Of a stretch of DNA of 64,000 bases, positions 5,145 to 63,295 are shown one piece after another; the first letter of the stretch is position 1; each line of letters starts with the position of its first letter. Where the stretch lies: NCBI GenBank assembly GCA_030710605.1, contig CP092874.1, positions 25,503,765 through 25,567,764 of the forward strand, written 5' to 3'. This DNA is from Cordylochernes scorpioides (Eukaryota; Arthropoda; Arachnida; Pseudoscorpiones; Chernetidae). The notes under the pieces were generated by a model. That model was not told where the DNA came from. It saw only the letters and a program-made list of their open reading frames with translations, and did no database searches. A program made the position numbers and the translations under genes.

Positions 5145-5400
5145 CTTGTAATAAAATACAATAATAATAATAAATAAAAAAACCTAACAGTATCTTTAAT
5201 TTAAAGAACGAAATTTAATGTATAGGAACTTTTTATTTGAACCGTCATTGTAATTGTCTAGAGGCTACTACTGTAAAACCCTGGTTCAATGAATCTTCCC
5301 AGTTTAAACAATGATATCTAAGCTATAACTAAAGTTCTACTTGTTTACTATATATTGTTGAATATTACAATATAATTTTTTATTAAGAGGTTAAAACCTT
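5145..5400. other. Possible intron sequence upstream of the 5.0 kb exon
   Basis: AT-rich, with no further minus-strand exon recognised. If the exon call is right, this is its intron. Confidence 0.25.
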
Positions 5401-5413
5401 TTGTAATGATTAT

Positions 5414-5614
5414 TGATAAGGCACAATTTGGATTATCGATTATAAAAACAAGGTAATAAAACCAAATCCAAATAAATAAATAGTGTGTGACGTTTCGGTA
5501 ACAGCGTTGTTACCATCTTACCATTCAGTACTTTTGTCTGAAGATGGTAACAACGCTGTTACCGAAACGTCACACACTATGTATTTATTTGGATTTGGTC
5601 TTATTACCTTGTGT
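5414..5614. mobile_element. Family A Penelope-like foldback insertion with TSD
   Basis: This 201-bp palindromic insert is bounded by a 13-bp direct repeat TTGTAATGATTAT (5401-5413 and 5615-5627). Each arm carries 'ccaaatccaaataaataaa' and a hammerhead-like motif pointing outward. The same unit occurs in rearranged form at 17.1 and 20.6 kb and forms the tandem array at 51.3 kb. The exact TSD implies that the inverted dimer inserted as one piece. Confidence 0.75.
5538..5571 (+). ncRNA. Hammerhead-like ribozyme motif, family A
   Basis: The order is CTGAAGA, one spacer T, stem II GGTAAC/GTTACC with loop AACGCT, GAAAC, then GTC. The core residues CUGANGA and GAAA are intact, and ACGT around GAAACGTC is self-complementary, so stem III could only form between two molecules. 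This matches the minimal hammerheads described in Penelope-like element terminal repeats. The extra base between CUGANGA and stem II is non-canonical. Confidence 0.6.
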
Positions 5615-5627
5615 TTGTAATGATTAT

Positions 5628-5867
5628 GAAAAAGGCATCTCCTTATCGTGCAACTGAAAGTTGCTGATGGCTTACGTCATCTTTCGGAATAAATATCAAC
5701 TATTCTCGTTGATTTCTAAATATTCCAGAATTGGCCAATTACCCATTCTTAATTAATCAAGAAAAGCTAAACATCAGCAACTTTCAGTTGCACGATAAGG
5801 AGATGCCTTTTTCATAATTAATCCACCTTATCCCCAGTACAATATCACATTTGTACTTTTTTTTTTC
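5628..5867. mobile_element. Family X foldback element
   Basis: Inverted arms share GGCATCTCCTTATCGTGCAA and 'gttgctgatggc'. The right end adds the AGTACAA/TTGTACT palindrome seen at 13.9 and 14.8 kb. The flanks CTTTTGTAATGA (near 5399) and CTTTTGTGATGA (5868 onward) look like an old target duplication that was later split by the family A insertion to its left. Confidence 0.6.
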
Positions 5868-6295
5868 ACTTTTGTGATGAGTTTGTTTAGTATCAGAACC
5901 GCGAACTTTCAAGCTTTCTATTGTAGTCAAACTGCAGAGATTTTTAAACACATCATCAACATTGCTCTCCTGCACATCACAGATGTTTCAAATATGAAGA
6001 AATCCACAACACACATTATAGTTAATTAACATATAACATCACACCTTATATATATATATGAAGTTTACAAATTGTTTAATTTTAAAAATAATTATATACG
6101 CATCTAAAATAATTTTAAATTCTTATATGTACGAAGTTTTGAGAAAAATATAAAATTGAAATCTATATCCCAAAACTTATGTACATATTTTCCTTAAAAT
6201 ATAAAGTACGATCCTTCCCAAGAATCCCTCTAAAATGCAGTCAGAACAGTATAATACAAGTATATAGGTGTCTAATACTTGTACAATAGTAGAAT

Positions 6296-10888: not shown

Positions 10889-11211
10889 TGTGGTTTTACC
10901 TACCATGATTATCATGGCCTAGCACAATGTGTAGATATGTTGACGTTATGTGGCGCTGAGTTTGTTGTTGACACACATTAATATGAAAAAATAGTACAAA
11001 TATGATATTGTACTGGGATAAGGTGCATAAATTATGATTATTTTATTACGATATTACGAATCCTTATTACGAAAAGGAGATGCCTTTTTCATAACACATT
11101 ACTATGTGTATTAATGTGTGTCAACAACAAACTCGGCGCTACATAACGTCAACATATCTACACATATAAATGTGTGCTAGACCATGATAATTATGGTAGA
11201 TAAAACCAAAG
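10889..11211. mobile_element. Composite foldback: SINE-A, family C and family X pieces
   Basis: The outer arms carry the SINE-A core 'accatgattatcatgg' and its inverted copy. Inside lie inverted copies of 'gttgacgttatgtggcgc', the spacer sequence of family C units at 30.5 and 63.0 kb. The centre has the family X palindrome 'agtacaaatatgatattgtac' and 'ggagatgcctttttcataa'. This is a nested palindrome made of three repeat families. Confidence 0.65.
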
Positions 11212-13929: not shown

Positions 13930-14058
13930 TGAAAAAAATAGTACAAATTTTATATTGTACTGGGATAAGGTGCATAAATTAGTTGATATTTATTCCGATA
14001 GATGGCGCAAGCCATCAGCAACTTTCAGTTGCACAATAAGGAGATGCCTTTTTCATAA
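13930..14058 (+). mobile_element. Family X short insertion with 12-bp TSD
   Basis: The 129-bp insert starts 'tgaaaaaaatagtacaaat' and ends 'ggagatgcctttttcataa'. It is flanked by TAAATAATAATT at 13918-13929 and 14059-14070. It holds the AGTACAA/TTGTACT hairpin, then 'gatagatggcgcaagccatc' and GCAACTTTCAGTTGC. No hammerhead is retained in this copy. Confidence 0.8.
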
Positions 14059-14777: not shown

Positions 14778-14789
14778 TTCAATTCTTTG

Positions 14790-15070
14790 TGAAAAAAATA
14801 GTACAAATGTAATGTTGTACTGGGATAAGGTGCATAAATTTAGAAAAAGGCATCTCCTTATCGTGCAACTGAAAGTTGCTGATGGCTTGAGCCATCTATC
14901 GGAATAAATATCAACTATTCTCGTTGATTTTTAATTATTCCAGAATTGGCCAAATAAATCCAAGCCAGAATTGGCCAAAAATCAACGAGAATAGTTGATA
15001 TTTATTCCGATAGATGGCGCAAGCCATCAGCAACTTTCAGTTGCACGATAAGGAGATGCTTTTTTCTAAA
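14790..15070. mobile_element. Family X foldback insertion with 12-bp TSD
   Basis: The 281-bp insert is flanked by TTCAATTCTTTG (14778-14789) and TTCAATTATTTG (15071-15082), differing at one base. It starts like the 13.9 kb copy, then runs into head-to-head arms sharing GGCATCTCCTTATCGTGCAA, 'gttgctgatggcttg' and 'caactattctcgttgat', meeting near 14950. The TSD shows that the inverted arrangement inserted in one event. Confidence 0.85.
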
Positions 15071-15231
15071 TTCAATTATTTGTCTTCCGAGAATTCTTAG
15101 TCATTCTGTTACTACAAAGTTATCCAAAAAGTTCGTTTTTTTGCTTAAAACGTTGTTTTTCATATTACTTAGCGAAATATATTAATACATAATAATACAT
15201 AATGCAATTACTTTACACATAATACAATGAC

Positions 15232-15440
15232 ATTATTTGAAAGAGGAAAAATAAAAATCAGGTAAAAAGTTTCTTTTAATTTTGAATTTGCAAGCTTCGA
15301 GGAAATATACTGTTCTTCAACGGGATAATATTCTATTATTTATTTGCCCGTTGAAGAGCAGTATATTTACTCGAAATCTTGCAAATTCAAAATTAAAAGA
15401 AACTTTTTACCTGATTTTTATTTTTCCTCTTTCAAATAAT
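15232..15440. mobile_element. Foldback element, arms about 94 bp, family D-like
   Basis: Arms 15232-15324 and 15346-15440 are nearly perfect inverted complements. The right arm reads CCCGTTGAAGAGC...CTCGAAATCTTG, which resembles the family D hammerhead-like motif (GTTGAAG, stem, GAAA, CTTG). Arms this similar imply a recent event or correction. No TSD found by eye. Confidence 0.75.
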
Positions 15441-16780
15441 TTCTGGGTTACTATTGCTTACACAAATACGTTATACATAACGACGAATATAATATAGGTA
15501 TTTCAATTTTTTTTGGCAAGTGTTTAAGAACTTTTGGGACAACCTTGTAATTCCTATTCTGTCTCTCTTTCTCTCAATTTCTCGATGCCACAATAGTGAA
15601 ACACTTATATACAGTAGAAAACACGAATGGAAGATTCTCTATTATAAAAGATAATTATTTTTTAAGATCATTTTTTTTTTACAACCACTGATGAAAATCA
15701 TTAGGAGAACCTGGTTAATCGTTTGTGTGAACTATCGCTGTGTTCAGATCAAACCATATACACTCATGGACAAACTTAGGTAGATGTGGAAAGTCTTTGA
15801 TGTCTTTTAAATACAAAGATATTTATTTATTTATGCTTATGAGGTGATACAGCAGCGTATTTACAATTAGAGAGGAGACAAAATGAATATAATGTAGCTG
15901 CTGTATTGTCCGTGAGGTCAAGAGACGTACGGACCTCTGTGGTGTTGATCTCTTGGCGGAACGACTTGGAAGTCGGACTCGGGCCCCCCCACTACGGCAA
16001 AGTGGGTACAAAGATATAATATATATGAGCTAATAACAAAGAAAGAGAATACATGTACTCAAAGTAAGAACGATTAAAAGTTCTATGAAAAGAATTTAGT
16101 CTTCATATCAAAGCCAGAGAGAGGAGCCAAAAGAGAAATCATTTACAAACCAAAGATGATGTTTCCATTTAAAAAGAATACGTTGCAAAATCAAAGAATC
16201 AGTCAATAATTTGGGCACGTAAAAAAAAAAAAAAAAAGAACAGTAGAGAAAATGATATCCGGCTGATTTTTATTTACATAATTCGTATTCACTTTCGCAA
16301 TGTTAAAAAATATTAATGTAAAATTAAAAAAAAGTCTAATTCGTTTTTCTAAAGAAACGCAAAGTGGAACGCCCCATCAAGGTTACCATTCAAACCAACA
16401 TGGCGTCTAAATGCTTGCATATTGGGGAATGTTGAATTTGCATAGCCTACAAACGTCCTTTGTCTACCGAACATCTCAGTGGAGCATCTTAACCCCCTTA
16501 GATCACCTCCCTCAATCAAGAATTACCTGACCATAAAGTCCATTTATAGTTTTGTGAAGAAAGGAATTAAAAAAATCCCCACAGGCCTTCATCAACATAA
16601 TTCTCTCCTCCCTCCCTTCGCACACACGGCGCCCTTGTTCTGTGCAAACACCGTTAGCATATTGATGAGCTGAGACCATCCTCTGTTGGAATGCCCTTCT
16701 TTTACTTTGCGCCCACTGTCTCCAGACACACTCAGGCGTACAGACTTCGGTCTAGGTAGCTCACTATCCATCGGTGTCTC
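15441..16780. other. Noncoding stretch with a MITE-1 TIR fragment
   Basis: A MITE-1 end ('acactcatggacaaac') near 15760 is followed directly by GTGGAAAGTCTTTGAT from the other end of the element, so that copy is internally deleted. A GC-richer block at 15900-16010 has a short open frame with no recognisable motif. Confidence 0.4.
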
Positions 16781-17109: not shown

Positions 17110-17215
17110 CAAATAAGACTTCTGATAAGGCACAGTTTGGATTATAGATTATAAACACAATAAACGTCACACACTATTTTTTTAAAATTTGGATTTGATC
17201 TTATTACCTTGTGTT
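17110..17215. mobile_element. Family A remnant
   Basis: It carries 'gataaggcacagtttggatt', AAACGTCACACACTATT and 'ttggatttgatcttattacc', which are pieces of the 5.4 kb unit with the hammerhead deleted between them. Confidence 0.6.
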
Positions 17216-17504
17216 TAAATACATCATATAGGATCGCTTTTGAGTACAATTCAAAAAGGTAATCAAAATGACACTTCTAAATCTTAAAATAATAAGCTGA
17301 ATTAGCCATTTTAGAAATAGAAAGAATTAAGTAACAATTCTAAAGATATCGTTAATCTCTTGAAAAGTTAAGCAAGCAACTATGACTAACCCGGATTCCG
17401 TAAAAAATTAGGATTGTGTTTTCTTTTTGCAAATACCACCATCACCACCACTTTATCATTTGGCGCTCAGATGGGAATGCTACAAAACTACACTTCCCTG
17501 TCTT

Positions 17505-18426: not shown

Positions 18427-18728
18427 TTTTCTCCTTTCTTATCTTCACTCAATCATATTAGAGTGTCAAGCTTGTAAATCTTGAAATTAACAACCATCAC
18501 GATTGGGTGAAGTAGAATGCGTCTGCCTTTGTCATCAAGACTGGGAGCACTACTCAGTGGCAGGCCACTGACTTAGCTCCAAAAGAATGTATCCCTGGAT
18601 TAGGAGCCCTTACAAGGTACTATCAGCCGGGCCAGCTGAGCCCAGGTTTTTTTAGTGAGGTTGTTACTGCTCCCCCTCCTCCTTTTTCATCCTGGCTTGG
18701 GACCGGCAAAGGCGGAGTTTTTTTTCTT
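18427..18728 (-). mobile_element. Element E copy, minus strand
   Basis: It runs from 'ctcctttcttatcttcactc' through 'gggagcactactcagtggc' and 'cagccgggccagctgagccc' to 'ggcaaaggcggag'. Poly-T stretches on both sides may be the target duplication. It matches copies at 50.0, 56.6 and 57.3 kb, with a deletion between 'ctccaaaagaa' and 'tgtatccctgg'. Confidence 0.75.
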
Positions 18729-27030: not shown

Positions 27031-27044
27031 AATAATCTTAGGTA

Positions 27045-27141
27045 GTGGAACGCTTCACGATTTTGCGTGTCATCCTTGCGCATGGGCCATACTAATCTTC
27101 TCTGTATCGTTCCTATTTTAGTATATGTACCGCCGAACAAG
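27045..27141 (-). pseudogene. U6 snRNA copy, probably a retropseudogene
   Basis: Read on the minus strand, it follows U6 almost from end to end: TTCGGCGGTACATATACTAA, GGAACGATACAGAGAAGATT, GATGACACGCAAAATCGTGA, AGCGTTCCAC. The ACAGAGA box is intact, but AGCATGGCCCCTG reads AGTATGGCCCATG. The run of T needed for RNA polymerase III termination is missing downstream. GGTAGTG flanks both ends, a possible short TSD. These points favour a retroposed pseudogene over one of the functional U6 genes. Confidence 0.75.
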
Positions 27142-27284
27142 CGTGTTGGTAGTGTAGTTTCTATTAAAAGAGATTTTATGCTACTGAAAAGTTATATATT
27201 TGCATAATATTATTACAGAATTATCATAAGAACTAAAAACATTAATATCTCACGCTATGAAGCTTCCAGGGTTAAGTTTCTTGT

Positions 27285-30338: not shown

Positions 30339-30350
30339 ACAGTGTTATAT

Positions 30351-30595
30351 TTAATTAAAAAGGCATATATTAGATCAAAACATCATTTATTTTACTAATA
30401 TTTCAGTTGGCTGAATGTCAACCTTTATCAAGGTGTTATAACATTTTAAAGTGTGTCAACAACAAACTCAGCGCCACATAACGTCAACAGAATTCTGTTG
30501 AACGCCAACTGAAATATTGGTAAAATAAATGATATTTTGATCCAATATATGCCTTTTTAATTAAAGATTTATTTAAGGATTGCTCTATTTTCAAA
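30351..30595. mobile_element. Family C foldback insertion with 12-bp TSD
   Basis: The 245-bp insert is bounded by ACAGTGTTATAT at 30339-30350 and 30596-30607. The arms carry AATTAAAAAGGCATATATT, 'tttcagttggctgaatg' and their inverses; the spacer holds 'caacaaactcagcgccacat'. The hammerhead-like motif in the left arm (30398-30433, minus strand) keeps the GTTGAC.../GCCAAC stem region and GAAAT, but has TTGATAA in place of CUGANGA. Confidence 0.8.
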
Positions 30596-30607
30596 ACAGT
30601 GTTATAT

Positions 30608-40440: not shown

Positions 40441-41105
40441 CTTGGCAGACTGTGTAGGTGCCTGCTTAGTACTACAACTTAGGCATAGGAGATCAACCCT
40501 GTGATACCAGTTCGGCGGTACAACTACAGTGGACCCTCGGTTTACGAGCACCTTGGAGTACGAGCAGCTTTTCGCAGTACGAGCAAATTTTTTTGAAAAA
40601 TTTTACCTCGGATTACGAGTGAAATTTCGCATTACGAGCAACTCGTGATGGTTGCCCGTAATCGTGATGGATAAAAATTCACTGGGATCCCTCCCTTCAG
40701 ATCAGATTCGGGAAATATGTAAAATGTGGGAAACTGTGCAATTGTTCGTAGCAAGAAGAATTGCCCGAGTTTCAATTATTAAAAATAAGAAATTAGTTTC
40801 GCACTACGAGCGTTTTGGAGTACGAGCATGGCTCTGGAACGGATTATGCTCGCAAACCGAGGGTCCACTGTACTACAATAGGAAGGATACAGATAAGATT
40901 AGCATGGCCCCTGTGATACCAGTTCGGCGGTACAACTACTACAATGGGAAGGATACAGAGAAGATTAGCATGGCCCCTGTGATACCAGTTCGGCGGTACA
41001 ACTACTACAATAGGAAGGATACAGAGAAGATTAGCATGACCCCTGTGATACCAGTTCGGCGGTACAACTACTACAATAGGAAGGATACAGAGAAGATCAC
41101 GGTCT
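40441..41105 (+). repeat. U6 snRNA-derived satellite, 66-bp unit
   Basis: Units start TTCGGCGGTAC at 40511, 40923, 40989 and 41055. Subtracting the inserted 344-bp element and its TA duplication makes every interval 66 bp. Each unit equals the 5' two-thirds of U6 snRNA ('ggtacaactactacaatagg', 'atacagagaagattagcatg', GCCCCTG) followed by TGATACCAG, then restarts at U6 nucleotide about 8. The U6 3' domain is absent. A degenerate unit may precede (40465-40500). The same junction occurs at 49.2 kb. Confidence 0.85.
40527..40870 (+). mobile_element. Tigger/pogo-like non-autonomous element in a U6 unit
   Basis: The 344-bp element has inverted ends CAGTGGACCCTCGGTTT and AAACCGAGGGTCCACTG and a TA duplication (40525-40526, 40871-40872). 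Removing it restores the U6-type unit exactly. TACGAGCA is repeated near both ends, perhaps as transposase-binding sites. The interior encodes LPSDQIREICKMWETVQLFV, which resembles the C-terminal helix of Tigger/Jerky transposases, so it is probably an internal-deletion derivative of an autonomous Tigger. Confidence 0.8.
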
Positions 41106-41925
41106 CAACGCAAAGATAACGTACAGACAAGATAATCTGGAAAAAGAAAGCTAAGGGAAGCTCCAAAGAGGGCTGTACCGTCAAAGGACGGTACCCCCCT
41201 CACCAAAAACACATTGATCCGTAATTTATTTGGGACAGGCATCGCTTCCTTTTACGAACGCCACCCCCCAGCCACTTAAGAGTGGGTGGTGGTATTCGGA
41301 GCATTTAGAAGCCTGAGGGGAGGAGGGAGGATTCTGGCGAGAAAGAAGAAGAAGAAAAAAAGAAAAATGTATGACGGGGGATTAATCTTCTTATTTGACG
41401 GTGGAGGCCTGGTGTCGCCTCCAAGTAAACATGTCTGGAGAGTGTCTATTGTGGCCTCTCTCCTGTCATTATACATATTTACATACCTACCTGTTGTATA
41501 CCACAGCCTGGTTTAAATCTCTTGAAGAATTTTTATTTGTTATTGATGATCTTTCGCGGTTTTGTATTATCCTCCAGGAATCTGGCTATTTATGGAAAAT
41601 GTTTTCACTTTTTTTTTTTTAATCTTCAATATTTGTTCCCCTTAAGTTAGGGATTTTCTTATGTAAGTATGTATGTGTATATATACCGTTTTGTAGATGG
41701 CTGTAATCCCCTTCGATTGCTCTCAATGAGTTTTTTTTTTTTCAACATGCATTGGTTCGTGTTTCTTTTTGAGTGTTTTAGGATATAGAGGAGTTGTGTT
41801 TGTGAATCAGATTTATCTTTAATTACAAGTTAGTTAGCAGATTCAGGTCGGCGAAAAATCACCAGTTTTGGAAAATTCAGAACACACACACACCTCTAGA
41901 TCAAAATACAATTTCAACCTTATTT
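41106..41925. other. Noncoding stretch
   Basis: An inverted repeat (TACCGTCAAAGGACGGTA) lies near 41176. A GC-richer block at 41280-41480 has no supported exon. Confidence 0.35.
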
Positions 41926-42489: not shown

Positions 42490-42655
42490 AACATTATGAA
42501 AAAGGCATCTCCTTATTGTGCAGCTGAAAGTTGCTGATGGCTTGCGCCATCTGTCGGAATAAATATCAACTATTCTCGTTGATTTTTAATTATTCCAAAA
42601 TTGGCCGAATACCCATTCTTGATTAATCAAGAAAAGCTAACCACGGACGCGTTTC
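42490..42655 (-). mobile_element. Family X element with partial hammerhead
   Basis: From right to left on the minus strand: GAAACGCGTC|CGTGG, 'ttagcttttcttgattaatc', 'atcaacgagaatagttgat', the GATGGC/GCCATC hairpin, and AGGAGATGCCTTTTTCATAA. It retains the 3' half of the hammerhead with the optimal GUC triplet. The CUGACGA half is lost at the truncation point. It joins the X body to the ribozyme seen at 49.9 kb. Confidence 0.7.
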
Positions 42656-48320: not shown

Positions 48321-49110
48321 TCCATTATGTTTACATATATACCATTAATCTTCTATATTCATGTATGTATGTATAGGTGCGATTTGGAATACTTTTTCGA
48401 AATGTATAGTATTCCATGTTTATATAGCCTCAGAATATGGTATTTACAACATCGAAGAGTGGAGGTATAATTCATTATAATTTATTTTACACAAATATGT
48501 AAATCTCTGAAGACATAGTTGGGGCATAAGAGATGTTCCTCAAACTTTCTCTATTCTGATCAATTCTATAGATAACTGTAGGGAAGTGGTCATGTTAGGT
48601 ATCTGTTTGATAGATTTGTCTGTATTGAATATTTGGTCTTCTTTTTTCATTGCATCGCGTTGGGTAGAGTAGTAGATGGTATGCAGTTGAAAAAAGGAGC
48701 AGTATAACTATGAAATCGAATAAATACCATTTTGTTGTTGCTCCTTGTAGATGAGTGGTGGTCGCTATGTCCACCATGGCTTATATCTGTGGAGAACTGA
48801 AAGCAACGGTACTGCAAACATCCATACATATAACAATGTAATATACCTTATAATAATTTTATAATGTACTCTGTTTAATTAATTTATTTTTGAATGTTTG
48901 GATTTGGCAGCACTGTAATTGTTGTTGTTATGAATATATTCAAAAATGTAAATATAACATTAGAAAGATATATAATTAAAATTTATTTCTTAATTTGGTA
49001 AAGCATATTTATTTATTTAATCGAAGAGAGAGAGGAACATTACAAACAAAAAAAAAAAAAACAGCTATTACAGATAACACTACAAGGGATATAAGTGGGG
49101 GGTAAGAAAA
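48321..49110. other. Noncoding stretch, nothing recognised
   Basis: Short frames near 48.6-48.8 kb have no motif. Confidence 0.3.
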
Positions 49111-49111
49111 G

Positions 49112-49276
49112 ACCTGGAATTCTTTACGATTTTGCGTGTCATCCTTGCGCAGGGGACATGCTAATCTTCTCTGTATCGTTCCTATTGTAGTAGTTGTACC
49201 GCCGAACTGATATCACAGGGACCATGCTAATCTTCTCTGTATCCTTCCTATTTTAGTAGTTGTACCGCCGAGCAAA
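49112..49276 (-). pseudogene. U6-U6 chimeric retropseudogene with TSD
   Basis: On the minus strand a U6 5' portion (...GATTAGCATGGTCCCTG) ends in TGATATCAG and restarts at TTCGGCGGTAC, then runs to the U6 3' end (GATGACACGCAAAATCGTAA...TTCCA). This is one 66-bp satellite-type unit fused to a full-length U6. The flanks AGAAAAGACC and TGAGAAGACC look like a slightly diverged target duplication, consistent with LINE-driven insertion. Confidence 0.75.
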
Positions 49277-49280
49277 CATG

Positions 49281-50759: not shown

Positions 50760-51304
50760 AATTCTCATTTCAAAAATATGCAAATAATAATTTTCTCAGA
50801 GGAAGATAGATAAACTTGAATCTTAAAATATTTGATTATTTTTAATTATTCTAATTTTTTCCAATTCCTGCCAATTATTTCCGTTTGTAATCTCGTTAAA
50901 TTTACATAAAAATGGGACTATGCAAATTAGAGAAATGTATAAATCCCCAATTGCATATTGGATTGGCACAAATCAATATAAAATCACACACTATGCAAAC
51001 ACCAATTACATTACTGAATACAATGATGTCAAGGAGGGGAGGAAACCAATGATAAATTATGATAGGTGTGAGCTACATTTATCATCATCAATATATCATC
51101 AATAATTATTGTTGTCATAGTTAAGGCGACTTCCTATTGGATAAGATTAATGAACACGGTGATTGGTCCAAATAGCTCCAATGGGAGATGTAACAACATT
51201 GTGTTTGTTTGTTTATAAACCGGCATTTGTGTGAACTACAGGATTCCTTGTTGTTTCTCAATGTTTCTCTCTCTGTCTGAAATATGAAACAGTTTAAAGA
51301 TAAC
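50760..51304. other. Noncoding stretch
   Basis: Two short open frames here have no known motif. Nothing recognised. Confidence 0.35.
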
Positions 51305-52556
51305 AAGACCAAATATAATTAAATAGTGTGTGACGTTTTGGTAGCAGCGTTGTTACCATCTTCAGACAAAAGTGCTGAATGTAATAAGATCAAATATAAT
51401 TAAATAGTGTGTGACGTTTTGGTAACAGCGTTTTTACCATCTTCAGACAAAAGTACTGAATGTAATAAGACCAAATATAAATAAATAGTGTGTGACGTTT
51501 TGGTAGCAGCGTTGTTACCATCTTCAGACAAAAGTGCTGAATGTAATAAGACCAAATATAATTAAATAGTGTGTGACGTTTTGGTAACAGCGTTGTTACC
51601 ATCTTCAGACAAAAGTGCTGAATGTAATAAGACCAAATATAAATAAATAGTGTGTGACGTTTTGGTAACAGCGTTGTTACCATCTTCAGACAAAAGTGCT
51701 GAATGTAATAAGACCAAATCCAAATAAATAAATAGTGTGTGACGTTTTGGTAACAGCGTTGTTACCATCTTCAGACAAAAGTGCTGAATGTAATAAGACC
51801 AAATATAATTAAATAGTGTGTGACGTTTTGGTAACAGCGTTGTTACCATCTTCAGACAAAAGTGCTGAATGTAATAAGACCAAATCCAAATAAATAAATA
51901 GTGTGTGACGTTTTGGTAACAGCGTTGTTACCATCTTCAGACAAAAGTGCTGAATGTAATAAGACCAAATCCAAATAAATAAATAGTGTGTGACGTTTTG
52001 GTAACAGCGTTGTTACCATCTTCAGACAAAAGTATTGAATGTAATAAGACCAAATCCAAATAAATAAATAGTGTGTGACGTTTTGGTAACAGCGTTGTTA
52101 ACATCTTCAGACAAAAGTGCTGAATGTAATAAGACCAAATCCAAATAAATAAATAGTGTGTGACGTTTTGGTAACAGCGTTGTTACCATCTTCAGACAAA
52201 AGTACTGAATGTAATAAGACCAAATCCAAATATAATTAAATAGTGTGTGAAGTTTTGGTAACAGCGTTGTTACCATCTTCAGACAAAAGTGCTGAATGTA
52301 ATAAGACCAAATCCAAATAAATAAATAGTGTGTGACGTTTTGGTAACAGCGTTGTTACCATCTTCAGACAAAAGTGCTGAATGTAATAAGACCAAATCCA
52401 AATAAATAAATAGTGTGTGACGTTTTGGTAACAGCGTTGTTACCATCTTCAGACAAAAGTACTGAATGTAATAAGACCAAATCCAAATATAATTAAATAG
52501 TGTGTGACGTTTTGGTAACAGCGTTGTTACCATCTTCAGACAAAATTACTGAATAA
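51305..52556 (-). repeat. Hammerhead-derived tandem array, 15 units of 81-87 bp (family A)
   Basis: Units start AAGACCAAAT or AAGATCAAAT at 51305, 51386, 51467, 51548, 51629, 51710, 51795, 51876, 51961, 52046, 52131, 52216, 52303, 52388 and 52473. The 81-bp type has 'atataattaaatag' or 'atataaataaatag'; the 85-bp type has 'atccaaataaataaatag'; one unit is 87 bp. On the minus strand each carries CTGAAGAT, stem II GGTAAC/GTTACC (or GCTACC), then AAAACGTC. In every unit the GAAA of the 5.5 kb copy is AAAA. Open frames across the array are by-products. Confidence 0.95.
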
Positions 52557-54480: not shown

Positions 54481-54483
54481 TAT

Positions 54484-54745
54484 TTCTTGAAAATGAAGAT
54501 ACTTCGGCCAATAAATCTTTTTATTACCTCGACGTTTCAACAAAAATCTTTTGTTCTCGTCAGGAGCAAACAAAAATTAAAACAGAATGATTTTAACGCC
54601 TTGCCAAATGTTTTAATTTTTGTTTGCTCCTGACGAGGACAAAAGATTTTTATTAAAACGTCGAGGTAATAAAAAATATTTACTGGTCGAAGTATCTTTA
54701 TTTTCAAGAAATATGAATGCCGGCCAGACAGCCTCTATTTTTAAG
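54484..54745. mobile_element. Family B foldback
   Basis: The left arm starts 'tttcttgaaaatgaagat' and the right arm ends 'aagaaatatgaatgccggcc'. They meet at a spacer near 54590 ('agaatgattttaacgccttg'). The left arm has a complete hammerhead-like motif on the minus strand. The right arm's plus-strand motif has lost GAAA (reads TTAAAAC). Confidence 0.75.
54531..54563 (-). ncRNA. Hammerhead-like motif, family B, compensated stem II
   Basis: The minus strand reads CTGACGAG, AACAAAA, GAT, TTTTGTT, GAAAC, GTC. Relative to 38.5 kb, the first stem pair G-C is A-T here, a compensatory double change that keeps the stem. All core residues are intact. Confidence 0.6.
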
Positions 54746-56494: not shown

Positions 56495-57018
56495 AAAATT
56501 GTTCTATTCTTGCAAAAGTCCAACCCCACACCAGTGAGTACAAGTAACCAAATGGGGCTCTGTCACATTTTAAGTGCAAATGTCGAACGGTTTCCCATAT
56601 ATATTTAGACATATATGTGATGCACTTACAATAAAACTCCGCCTTTGACGGTCCCAAGCCCGGATGAAAAAGTAGGAGGGGGAGCAGTAACAAGCTCACT
56701 AAAAACCCTGGGCTCAGCTGGCCCGGCTGATAGTACCCTGTAAGGGCTCCTAATCCAGGGATACAGGATGAGCAGCATTTGTACTCCATGTTAGGAGCAG
56801 CTGCACATGGCGTCTGTTCCTCATGTCAGAGGCGGCCATTTCTTTTGGAGCTAAGTCGGCCTGCCACTAAGTAGTGCTCCCAGTCTTAATGACAAAGGCA
56901 GACACATTCTACTTCACCCAGTGTGGAGATAAGAAAGAAGAAGAAGAAGACTTACAATAAAATCCGTCGTCGGCTATTACACAACATGATTATCATGGCC
57001 TGTATTACGTGTACTTAG
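56495..57018 (+). mobile_element. SINE-A copy split by element E
   Basis: The left part (56495-56636) has 'gcaaaagtccaaccccac' and a decayed palindrome. The right part (56950-57018) has 'acatgattatcatggcctgt' and GTACTTAGG. Element E inserted at ACTTACAATAAAA between them. Confidence 0.8.
56637..56949 (+). mobile_element. Element E (SINE-like), 313 bp, 13-bp TSD
   Basis: It is flanked by ACTTACAATAAAA at 56624-56636 and 56950-56962. It starts CTCCGCCTTTGACGGTCCCA and ends in a (GAA)n tail. The same 5' start appears at 18.73 and 57.59 kb, so this is a defined unit rather than random truncation, as in a SINE. I do not see a clear tRNA-type A/B box. Confidence 0.85.
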
Positions 57019-57300: not shown

Positions 57301-57593
57301 CTTCTTCTTCTTTTTTATCTCCACATTGTGTGAAGTAGAATGCGTCTGCCTTTGTCATTAAGACTGAGAGCACTACTCAGTGGCTTGCCGACTTAGCTCC
57401 AAAAGAAATGGCCGCCTCTGACATGAGGAACAGACGCCATGTGCAGCCGCTCCTAAGTACAGACATCCTGTATCCCTGGAGCCCTTACAGGGTACTATCA
57501 GCCGGGCCAGCTGAGCCTAGGTTTTTTAGTGAGCTTGTTACTGCTCCCCCTCCTCCTTTTTCATCCGGGCTTGGGACCGACAAAGGCGGAGTT
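57301..57593 (-). mobile_element. Element E, 293 bp, 11-bp TSD
   Basis: It is flanked by TGGTTCGTTGT at 57290-57300 and 57594-57604. It runs from the CTTCTTCTTC tail on the left to GGCAAAGGCGGAGTT-like sequence on the right. Confidence 0.85.
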
Positions 57594-57630
57594 TGGTTCG
57601 TTGTAATACAAGTTAGCTATATACAGTAGA

Positions 57631-59385: not shown

Positions 59386-59426
59386 ACATTATTTGCTTCT
59401 TATATAATCATTGTGTTTTATCCATG

Positions 59427-59639
59427 TACGCGTATGATTCTTTTGAAAATTAAACAATTTCTACTGCCCTTACTGCAATGGAAATATTAAAGGGAGGGCC
59501 TGGCTCATCAGTGGTGAACCCTTAAACTGGCGAAACCGCTGGGAGGGTTCACCACTGATGAGCCTGGCGCTCCCATTAATTTTTCCATTGCAGTAAGGGC
59601 AGTAGAAATTGTTTGTTTTTCAAAAGAATCATACGCGTA
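59427..59639. mobile_element. Family G foldback, 95-bp arms
   Basis: Arms 59427-59521 and 59545-59639 are near-perfect inverted complements ('tacgcgtatgattctttt', CTACTGCCCTTACTGCAATG, GGCTCATCAGTGGTGAACCC). The spacer holds CTGGCGAAACCGCTGG. The arms include the CTGATGAGCC box. Confidence 0.85.
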
Positions 59640-59739
59640 TATAATAGCTTCGAATATTCATAACATGTATCTATGTAGAGGTATAAAAATATAACAAATG
59701 AAAACATCAAGACGCGAATGTTTCTTTTCCCAAATAAAA

Positions 59740-62658: not shown

Positions 62659-63295
62659 TTTTAATTAAAAAGGCATATATTGGATCAAAATATTTATTTT
62701 ACCAATATTTCAGTTGGCTGAACGCCAACCTTTATCAAGGTATTATAACATATTAATATGTTTTGAAAATAGAGCAATCCATTAAAAATATTTAATTAAA
62801 AAGGCATATATTGGATCAAAATATAATTTATTTTACTAATATTTCAGTTGGCTGAACGCCAACCTTTATCAAGGTATTATAACATATTAATATGTTTTGA
62901 AAATAGAGCAATCCATTAAAAATATTTAATTAAAAAGGCATATATTGGATCAAAATATAATTTATTTTACTAATATTTCAGTTGGCTGAACGCCGACCTT
63001 CATCAAGGTGTTATAACATATTAATGTGTGTCAACAACAAACTCAGCGCCACATAACGTCAACAGAATTAAGTTTTTAAAAATATTTTGTTATATTCAAT
63101 GGGAAGAAAAAAAAAAGATATATAAATTTATATTATGGACAAAATAAATTTTGTAAATATGTTATAACACCTTGATAAAGGTTGGCGTTCAGCCAACAGA
63201 AATATTAGTAAAATAAATTATATTTTGATCCAATATATACATTTTTAATTAAAGATTTATTTATGGATTGCTCTATTTTCAAAACAATATAATAT
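62659..63295. mobile_element. Family C: three tandem units plus one inverted unit
   Basis: Units begin TTAATTAAAAAGGCATATAT at 62661, 62792 and 62926 (131 and 134 bp apart). An inverted unit occupies 63160-63290. Each carries the GTTGGC/GCCAAC stem II, GAAAT and a TTGATAA box. The last direct unit ends in the 'caacaaactcagcgccacat' spacer. The flanks (ACATTATAATAG, ACAATATAATATG) may be a diverged target duplication. Confidence 0.85.

What the first reader, a model, noticed from the sequence alone, without database searches (positions are those of the whole stretch)
5414..5614. Inverted dimers of ribozyme-bearing units insert as single pieces with target duplications
Three families show the same arrangement: A (5414-5614, TSD TTGTAATGATTAT), X (14790-15070, TSD TTCAATT[C/A]TTTG) and C (30351-30595, TSD ACAGTGTTATAT). 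Each is a head-to-head foldback bounded by a 12-13 bp direct repeat, so inversion preceded or accompanied insertion. Penelope-like elements are known for odd tandem and inverted copies; recurrent foldback units this short (about 200-280 bp) suggest a regular product, for example reverse transcription switching between two annealed RNAs held together by the palindromic stem III.
Basis: partly seen in the sequence, partly recalled or inferred. Interest (0 to 1): 0.75.

Follow-up and report, generated by a model that had tools for sequence, protein, structure and literature searches.

The report
Two-sided Penelope-type retroelement insertions
Short jumping-gene copies in this genome are inserted as back-to-back pairs that look as if two RNA molecules were copied into the two sides of one staggered cut, each copy starting at a different fixed point on its RNA, which would explain a long-known oddity of Penelope-type elements.

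Summary
Observation confirmed. A, X and C are head-to-head foldbacks with 12-14 bp target duplications at the stated coordinates. Genome copies behave alike: a duplication was found in 76 of 107 P/T foldback rows against 12 of 321 mismatched pairings. The proposed mechanism (switching between two annealed RNAs) is not supported. The asymmetric 'head' beside one arm is the reverse complement of a 3' extension like the Penelope-like-element (PLE) 'tail': one outer end is a proximal 3' site (P), the other a distal, tailed site (T). In 63 rows outside the hits that foldback queries were meant to find: P/T 39, P/P 6, T/T 1, unresolved 17 (five P/T rows are repeats or query hits). All 25 resolved rows there with a duplication are P/T (23 loci). 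Junctions differ between copies, so foldbacks arise anew. In 15 of 15 rows with a diagnostic G in one arm of a short A foldback, the other arm has T (14 loci), so two RNA molecules were copied. Best reading: two-sided target-primed reverse transcription by a PLE enzyme, one cDNA from P, one from T, joined end to end. Inverted, one-tailed PLEs are in print; I found no paper with the P/T pairing count or the two-template evidence.

The parts
5400..5413 (.). left target duplication of foldback A1 (TTTGTAATGATTAT)
   Evidence: TSD test
5414..5519 (-). A1 T arm: unit q19-124 in reverse, outer end is the tail
   Evidence: L001 = this locus
5520..5522 (.). A1 junction filler ACC
5523..5613 (+). A1 P arm: unit from q1 (ATTCAG) to the proximal 3' end (..CCTTGTG)
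5538..5571 (+). hammerhead-like core CTGAAGA - stem II - GAAACGTC with an ATG at stem II
   Evidence: motif by eye; stem II folds; not called by Rfam
5614..5627 (.). right target duplication of A1
5628..5868 (-). X2, foldback of family X (P end left, T end right); A1 sits inside its flanking duplication
10986..11094 (+). X4: T arm 52 nt, P arm 26 nt, imperfect TSD
13930..14058 (+). X3: T arm is about the tail only, then P arm; TSD around TAAATAATAATT
   Evidence: as L031:641-769
14778..14789 (.). left target duplication of X1
14790..14956 (-). X1 T arm with about 50-nt tail
14977..15070 (+). X1 P arm ending CTTTTTTCTAA
15071..15082 (.). right target duplication of X1
17123..17217 (+). A2: T arm is about the tail only (38 nt), P arm 56 nt; no TSD found
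30339..30350 (.). left target duplication of C1
30351..30490 (-). C1 P arm, outer end TTAATTAAAAAGGC
30504..30595 (+). C1 T arm with about 30-nt tail
30596..30607 (.). right target duplication of C1
37867..38075 (.). C-family foldback, P end left, T end right (arms 90 bases apart, so not among the counted rows)
42494..42645 (-). X5, single-arm X copy ending at P, preceded by GAAACGCGTC
51297..52554 (-). tandem array of about 15 A units (85 bp); units match q1-88 and lack the P end and the tail
62660..63285 (.). C-family tandem plus foldback: outer left end P, outer right end T; internal tandem joints show that the tail is contiguous with the unit

Best explanation
These are non-autonomous PLE-type units moved by two-sided target-primed reverse transcription. 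A PLE enzyme (probably a dimer carrying two RNAs) cuts both target strands 12-15 bp apart. Each free 3' end primes a cDNA on its own sense RNA: one starts at the proximal site P, the other at the distal site T, 30-50 nt further 3'. Both cDNAs run toward the RNA 5' end and are then joined 3' end to 3' end, often with filler bases or at the stem-II inverted repeat, giving T-arm/P-arm head-to-head pairs between TSDs. Shown here: the anatomy, TSDs, P/T asymmetry, varying junctions, different alleles in the two arms. Inferred: dimer, order of steps, how the ends are joined, which enzyme acts.
For: (1) The head is the reverse complement of a 3' tail: in the C tandem array it follows the unit directly. 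(2) Of 63 rows outside the primaries: P/T 39, P/P 6, T/T 1, unresolved 17. L006:2093 is itself a hit (L020) and four rows are duplicated loci, leaving 34 P/T; L040 repeats L037, leaving 5 P/P. With a TSD: P/T 25 of 35 (23 loci), P/P or T/T 0 of 6. (3) 20 stretches fetched of 40 places hit by a query without tail, by eye: 14 P/T, 1 T/T, 3 with one end seen, 1 duplicate; one P/T spans two stretches and one (L101) is doubtful because its P end runs into another repeat. (4) TSD 76 of 107 rows against 12 of 321. (5) Junctions differ between copies. (6) Non-CpG site q59: 15 of 15 rows with G have G in one arm and T in the other, G in the T arm in 10 and in the P arm in 5 (14 loci). (7) Removing A1 and one TSD copy restores the 12-bp duplication of X2 at 11 of 12 positions. 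(8) In print: a purified PLE starts cDNA at two internal RNA sites that bound the tail, cuts and extends both strands, and is predicted dimeric (PMC11167929). (9) All 11 neighbouring pairs within 12 kb among the 146 listed GIY-YIG matches (best-scored part of 17,015 candidates) are minus/plus, head to head.
Against: P/P and T/T rows exist (6 and 1, plus L107 by eye, and L007 and L033 among the primaries); of the 5 P/P rows testable for a TSD, 4 are fused to another repeat, nested or part of an array (L037 and L040 are one locus) and one (X, L047) is not; none has a TSD, but they may be real. 31 of 107 P/T rows show no good TSD. 17 of 63 rows are unresolved, 3 of these with a TSD. Arms within an element are somewhat more alike than shuffled pairs (A 0.0455 against 0.0520; X 0.0403 against 0.0538; C 0.0572 against 0.0666), which could mean one RNA in some cases. 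G/G pairs occur in the longer elements L092/L098 and L107 (by eye). No PLE gene was tied to these units by sequence. The published enzyme showed no start-site difference between strands, which does not predict a strict pairing.
Confidence: 0.7

Rival explanations
1. Self-priming: a cDNA (or antisense RNA) folds back at a palindrome and copies itself, as proposed for rotifer Penelope elements.
For: Head-to-head orientation and palindromes at junctions are reported (PMC3846280); here 6 of 50 A rows overlap by 17-18 bases, the length of stem II, and stem II starts are frequent (12 of 100).
Against: The T arm holds tail bases absent from a P-primed cDNA; the two arms carry different alleles (15 of 15 informative rows); many junctions have fillers.
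Confidence: 0.12
2. The foldback is itself the element and is copied whole.
For: Full-length foldbacks match A1 at 89-96% while A1's own arms match at 89%.
Against: Arm ends, fillers and overlaps differ from copy to copy; the q59 G lies in either arm.
Confidence: 0.08
3. Reverse transcriptase switches between two annealed sense RNAs.
For: Two RNAs are indeed implied.
Against: It gives direct, not inverted, order; junctions are not at stem III (3 of 100 at q42-50).
Confidence: 0.03
4. Two separate insertions, or a palindromic DNA transposon (MITE).
For: Short TGAAAAA/TTTTTCA ends in X look like terminal repeats.
Against: One TSD encloses the pair; arm lengths and junctions vary; tandem forms and a tail occur; TSD length varies (9-23).
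Confidence: 0.04
5. P/P and T/T products form equally but are lost more often as perfect hairpins.
For: Long palindromes are unstable (general knowledge, no call).
Against: P/T pairs keep near-perfect arms of 65-96 nt in the three reported cases, so one 30-50 nt tail should matter little.
Confidence: 0.03

Closest known systems
Penelope retrotransposons of Adineta vaga, e.g. Pen2a_Av (PMC3846280; term passages and the Discussion read)
   Different: those described are mostly gene-bearing and few; self-priming was proposed; here short gene-less units, many insertions, P/T pairing counted, two templates indicated by alleles
Poseidon PLE of Anolis, PAc (PMC11167929; parts 1 and 2 of 4 and term passages read)
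   Same: hammerhead with the start codon at stem II and cleavage about 26 nt after it, two RNA start sites bounding a 30-40 nt tail, both target strands cut and extended, AT-rich targets
   Different: no link there between strand and start site; foldback products are not treated in what I read
Animal retrozymes (PMC7229834; abstract, introduction and start of methods read)
   Same: small gene-less units with type I hammerheads in tandem arrays; 170-400 nt RNAs
   Different: described as tandem repeats spreading through RNA circles; here foldbacks with tails, and X5 and L054 extend about 10 nt upstream of the predicted cleavage site
Twin priming of L1 (recalled, no call)
   Same: both target strands prime cDNA, giving an inversion inside one TSD
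   Different: in L1 the two cDNAs copy different parts of one RNA; here both copy the same 3' region, apparently from two RNAs

Membership tests
Penelope-like elements (non-autonomous members) | optional 30-40 bp tail at one end, bounded by two start sites | tested here: met
   tail of about 30-50 nt at one end; P/T 39, P/P 6, T/T 1, unresolved 17 of 63 rows; that the two ends are start sites is taken from PMC11167929
Penelope-like elements (non-autonomous members) | tandem or inverted pLTR arrangement | tested here: met
   foldbacks and tandem arrays
Penelope-like elements (non-autonomous members) | hammerhead motif in the pLTR | tested here: inconclusive
   core by eye in A and in longer X copies; Rfam HH9 26.5 bits, below the 52 cut-off, in L033 and L083; none called over A1, X1 or C1
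Penelope-like elements (non-autonomous members) | short target duplications at AT-rich sites | tested here: met
   TSD in 76 of 107 rows; AT-rich by eye, not compared with the AT-rich background
Penelope-like elements (non-autonomous members) | RT plus GIY-YIG gene in the element or a partner with the same ends | tested here: inconclusive
Animal retrozymes | type I hammerheads within short tandem repeats | tested here: inconclusive
   tandem arrays present; canonical-looking core only in longer X copies
Animal retrozymes | circular RNA intermediates | not testable with these tools
   no RNA data
MITE / foldback DNA transposon | identical terminal inverted repeats at both ends and fixed TSD length | tested here: not met
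   one end has an extra tail; TSD length 9-23

The most novel reading that the evidence does not exclude
PLE insertion is a two-RNA reaction by rule: an asymmetric enzyme dimer primes both target strands, one protomer always at P and the other always at T, so no second strand is made on the first cDNA and every insertion is a hetero-dimer of two transcripts; tails and inverted copies are two sides of one mechanism.
Probability: 0.5. Interest if true: 0.85.

Novelty: new variant of a known kind. Interest (0 to 1): 0.66.

Why it matters
How PLEs finish insertion, and why they carry optional tails and inverted copies, is left open in both PLE papers that I read in part. If each insertion is two cDNAs from two RNAs starting at two set sites, tails, inverted copies and TSDs have one cause, and the enzyme differs from LINE-type enzymes in making both sides of the insert directly from RNA. 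The genome then holds many natural experiments on how two cDNA ends are joined, and a purified PLE with two marked RNAs could test it directly.

Tried and rejected
Head as a separate module shared by A and X: dropped once the C tandem array showed that it is the unit's own 3' extension. 'P arm always full, T arm truncated': seen in the primary A rows, but those resemble the A1 query; not kept, as arm starts outside them look less one-sided. C junctions nearly always at q80: likewise from C1-like copies, so not weighed. Linking the units to a PLE gene: only GIY-YIG positions were found, no shared letters; a GIY-YIG-like frame beside the A copy in L005 lies outside its TSD (recognised by eye, not scanned). 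RNA folding: no better than shuffles for the X hammerhead (z 0.26), weak for A (z -1.38). Several miRNA-family matches fall on foldback hairpins and are below cut-off. Species not identified.

Full report
What is there. A1 is 5414-5613 between 14-bp duplications, X1 is 14790-15070 between 12-bp duplications with one mismatch, C1 is 30351-30595 between perfect 12-bp duplications. The window lies in a 2.62-Gb genome of 24 contigs, with U6-like repeats and a Tc1-type transposase frame; it is eukaryotic, species unknown.

The asymmetry. In each of the three, one outer end has a stretch that the other lacks: 5414-5438 in A1, 14790-14836 in X1, 30569-30595 in C1. In the C tandem array at 62660-63285 this stretch follows the unit directly at internal joints. 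It is therefore the unit's own 3' extension. I call the short 3' end P and the long one T. This is the layout of the PLE tail, described as optionally present on one of two inverted pLTRs (PMC3846280) and shown in vitro to lie between two reverse-transcription start sites (PMC11167929).

Genome copies. Searches with A1, X1 and C1 gave 30 loci each. Because those queries were themselves P/T foldbacks, their hits are biased. They class as A 25 P/T, 1 T/T, 1 unresolved of 27 rows; X 23 P/T, 1 T/T of 24; C 24 P/T, 6 unresolved of 30 (repeated loci removed). For a fairer sample I used (a) other copies that lie in the flanks of those loci and in the window, and (b) 20 stretches fetched for part of 40 places hit by a query with one unit and no tail. 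Together 63 rows: 39 P/T, 6 P/P, 1 T/T, 17 unresolved. Checking names, one P/T row (L006:2093) is itself a hit and four repeat other loci (L026 twice, L108, and L002 in X), so 34 remain; L040 repeats L037, so 5 P/P remain. By eye, set (b) holds 14 P/T insertions (one spans L098 and L092, 1.7 kb apart; L101 is doubtful, its P end running into another repeat), one T/T (L107), three with only one end seen (L097, L106, L109) and one duplicate (L108). The script did not pair the spanning element, L100 (P arm about 9 nt) or L107, whose arms are not adjacent or are too short.

Target duplications. With the T end turned left, a score of 9 or more was reached in 76 of 107 P/T rows and in 12 of 321 pairings of mismatched flanks; 51 of the 76 are 12-15 long. 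By class outside the primaries: A P/T 20 of 27, C P/T 3 of 4, X P/T 2 of 4, P/P or T/T 0 of 6; primary T/T 0 of 2. Among unresolved rows outside the primaries 2 of 11 A, 1 of 1 C and 0 of 3 X have one. So all 25 resolved rows with a duplication in the fairer sample (23 loci, as L026:674 and L108 are repeats) are P/T; if the two ends were chosen independently at most half should be. A1 sits inside the duplication of X2: taking A1 and one of its duplications away restores the 12-bp duplication of X2 at 11 of 12 positions, where with A1 in place the match breaks off after 10. This shows A1 as a single insertion.

Junctions. The point where the arms meet differs from copy to copy, with up to 29 filler bases in some and short overlaps in others. 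Outside the primaries, A arm starts pile up at q1 (23 of 100) and at stem II q24-25 (12 of 100), with 3 of 100 at stem III (q42-50); 6 of 50 A rows overlap by 17-18 bases across stem II. The foldback is thus mostly made anew at each insertion. Two cDNAs of one polarity can pair only at inverted repeats, which may explain the palindromes noted in print.

Two templates. At unit position 59 of A (CTAT[T/G]TATTT, not CpG) 15 of 15 short foldbacks with G in an arm have T in the other; G is in the T arm in 10 and in the P arm in 5 (L108 duplicates L096, so 14 loci). The queries carried G, so G in one arm was favoured, but the other arm was not. One RNA, or copying of one arm from the other, would give G in both. 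G/G was seen by eye in the longer elements L092/L098 and L107, which the script did not pair. Against full independence, arms within an element are slightly more alike than shuffled pairs (A 0.0455 against 0.0520, 0 of 500 shuffles as low; X 0.0403 against 0.0538, 0 of 500; C 0.0572 against 0.0666, 1 of 500), as expected if both templates come from one pool at one time, or if some insertions use one RNA.

Mechanism. The tail in the T arm speaks against copying of the T arm from the P-primed cDNA, hence against simple self-priming. A switch between two sense RNAs gives direct order. What fits is cDNA synthesis from both nicked strands, each on its own RNA, one from P and one from T, followed by joining of the two cDNA 3' ends. 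The PLE enzyme PAc cuts and extends both strands, starts at two sites and is predicted dimeric, though its authors saw no start-site difference between strands. In this genome 146 GIY-YIG matches are listed, the best-scored part of 17,015 candidates; all 11 neighbouring pairs within 12 kb are in minus/plus order, which is head to head if the domain is C-terminal as in canonical PLEs. Why one end is P and the other T is not known; an asymmetric dimer is my guess. P and T sites look alike (X: GCCTTTTTCA and ACTATTTTTTTCA; C: GCCTTTTTAA and TCTATTTTCA; by eye), as if a start motif were present twice.

Known or new. Searches of the paper library (listings, with three papers read in part) showed inverted, one-tailed PLEs and the two start sites; I saw no paper that counts the pairing or shows two templates. 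The library lacks most subscription papers, and I recall earlier PLE papers that I could not check there. I rate it a new variant of a known kind with a clear mechanistic proposal.

Noticed in passing
window 18670-18724 (-), 56630-56684 (+), 57544-57598 (-): Type-P1 twister ribozyme matches (29.0-44.6 bits, best E 1.3e-6, below the 67.2-bit cut-off) inside a dispersed repeat; the stretch at 56.8-57.5 kb forms a foldback with 173-nt arms. The same repeat abuts P ends of A copies in L027 and L042.
   Followed up: no
window 40847-41148, 27039-27144, 49108-49277: U6 snRNA-like copies, including a 66-bp tandem repeat made of the first 65 positions of U6.
   Followed up: no
window 54481-54713: Another foldback with a hammerhead-like motif (CTGACGAG..GTTGAAACGTC in one arm) whose two ends are symmetrical, with no target duplication seen by eye: it does not show the P/T pattern.
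   Followed up: partly
L010, L037 (and its duplicate L040), L101: ends of A copies: A units whose 3' end runs into CTAGCCGAATGACCCG[GC]GCAACGCCCGTG instead of the tail: fusion with another repeat or an alternative 3' end.
   Followed up: no
G000, 146 listed places: Very many GIY-YIG endonuclease candidates (17,015 first-look, 146 matches listed, open frames up to 828 aa): the genome looks rich in gene-bearing PLEs.
   Followed up: partly
L033 1169-1362, L083 1240-1495: Longer X copies carry a canonical-looking type I hammerhead whose cleavage site falls at the 5' end (q1) of the X unit as I defined it; X5 and L054 extend about 10 nt past it. Related copies in L062 and L080 have a similar core by eye but no Rfam hammerhead match.
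   Followed up: partly
window 15229-15443 and 59424-59642: Further near-perfect foldbacks (69- and 99-nt arms) of other families, not analysed.
   Followed up: no
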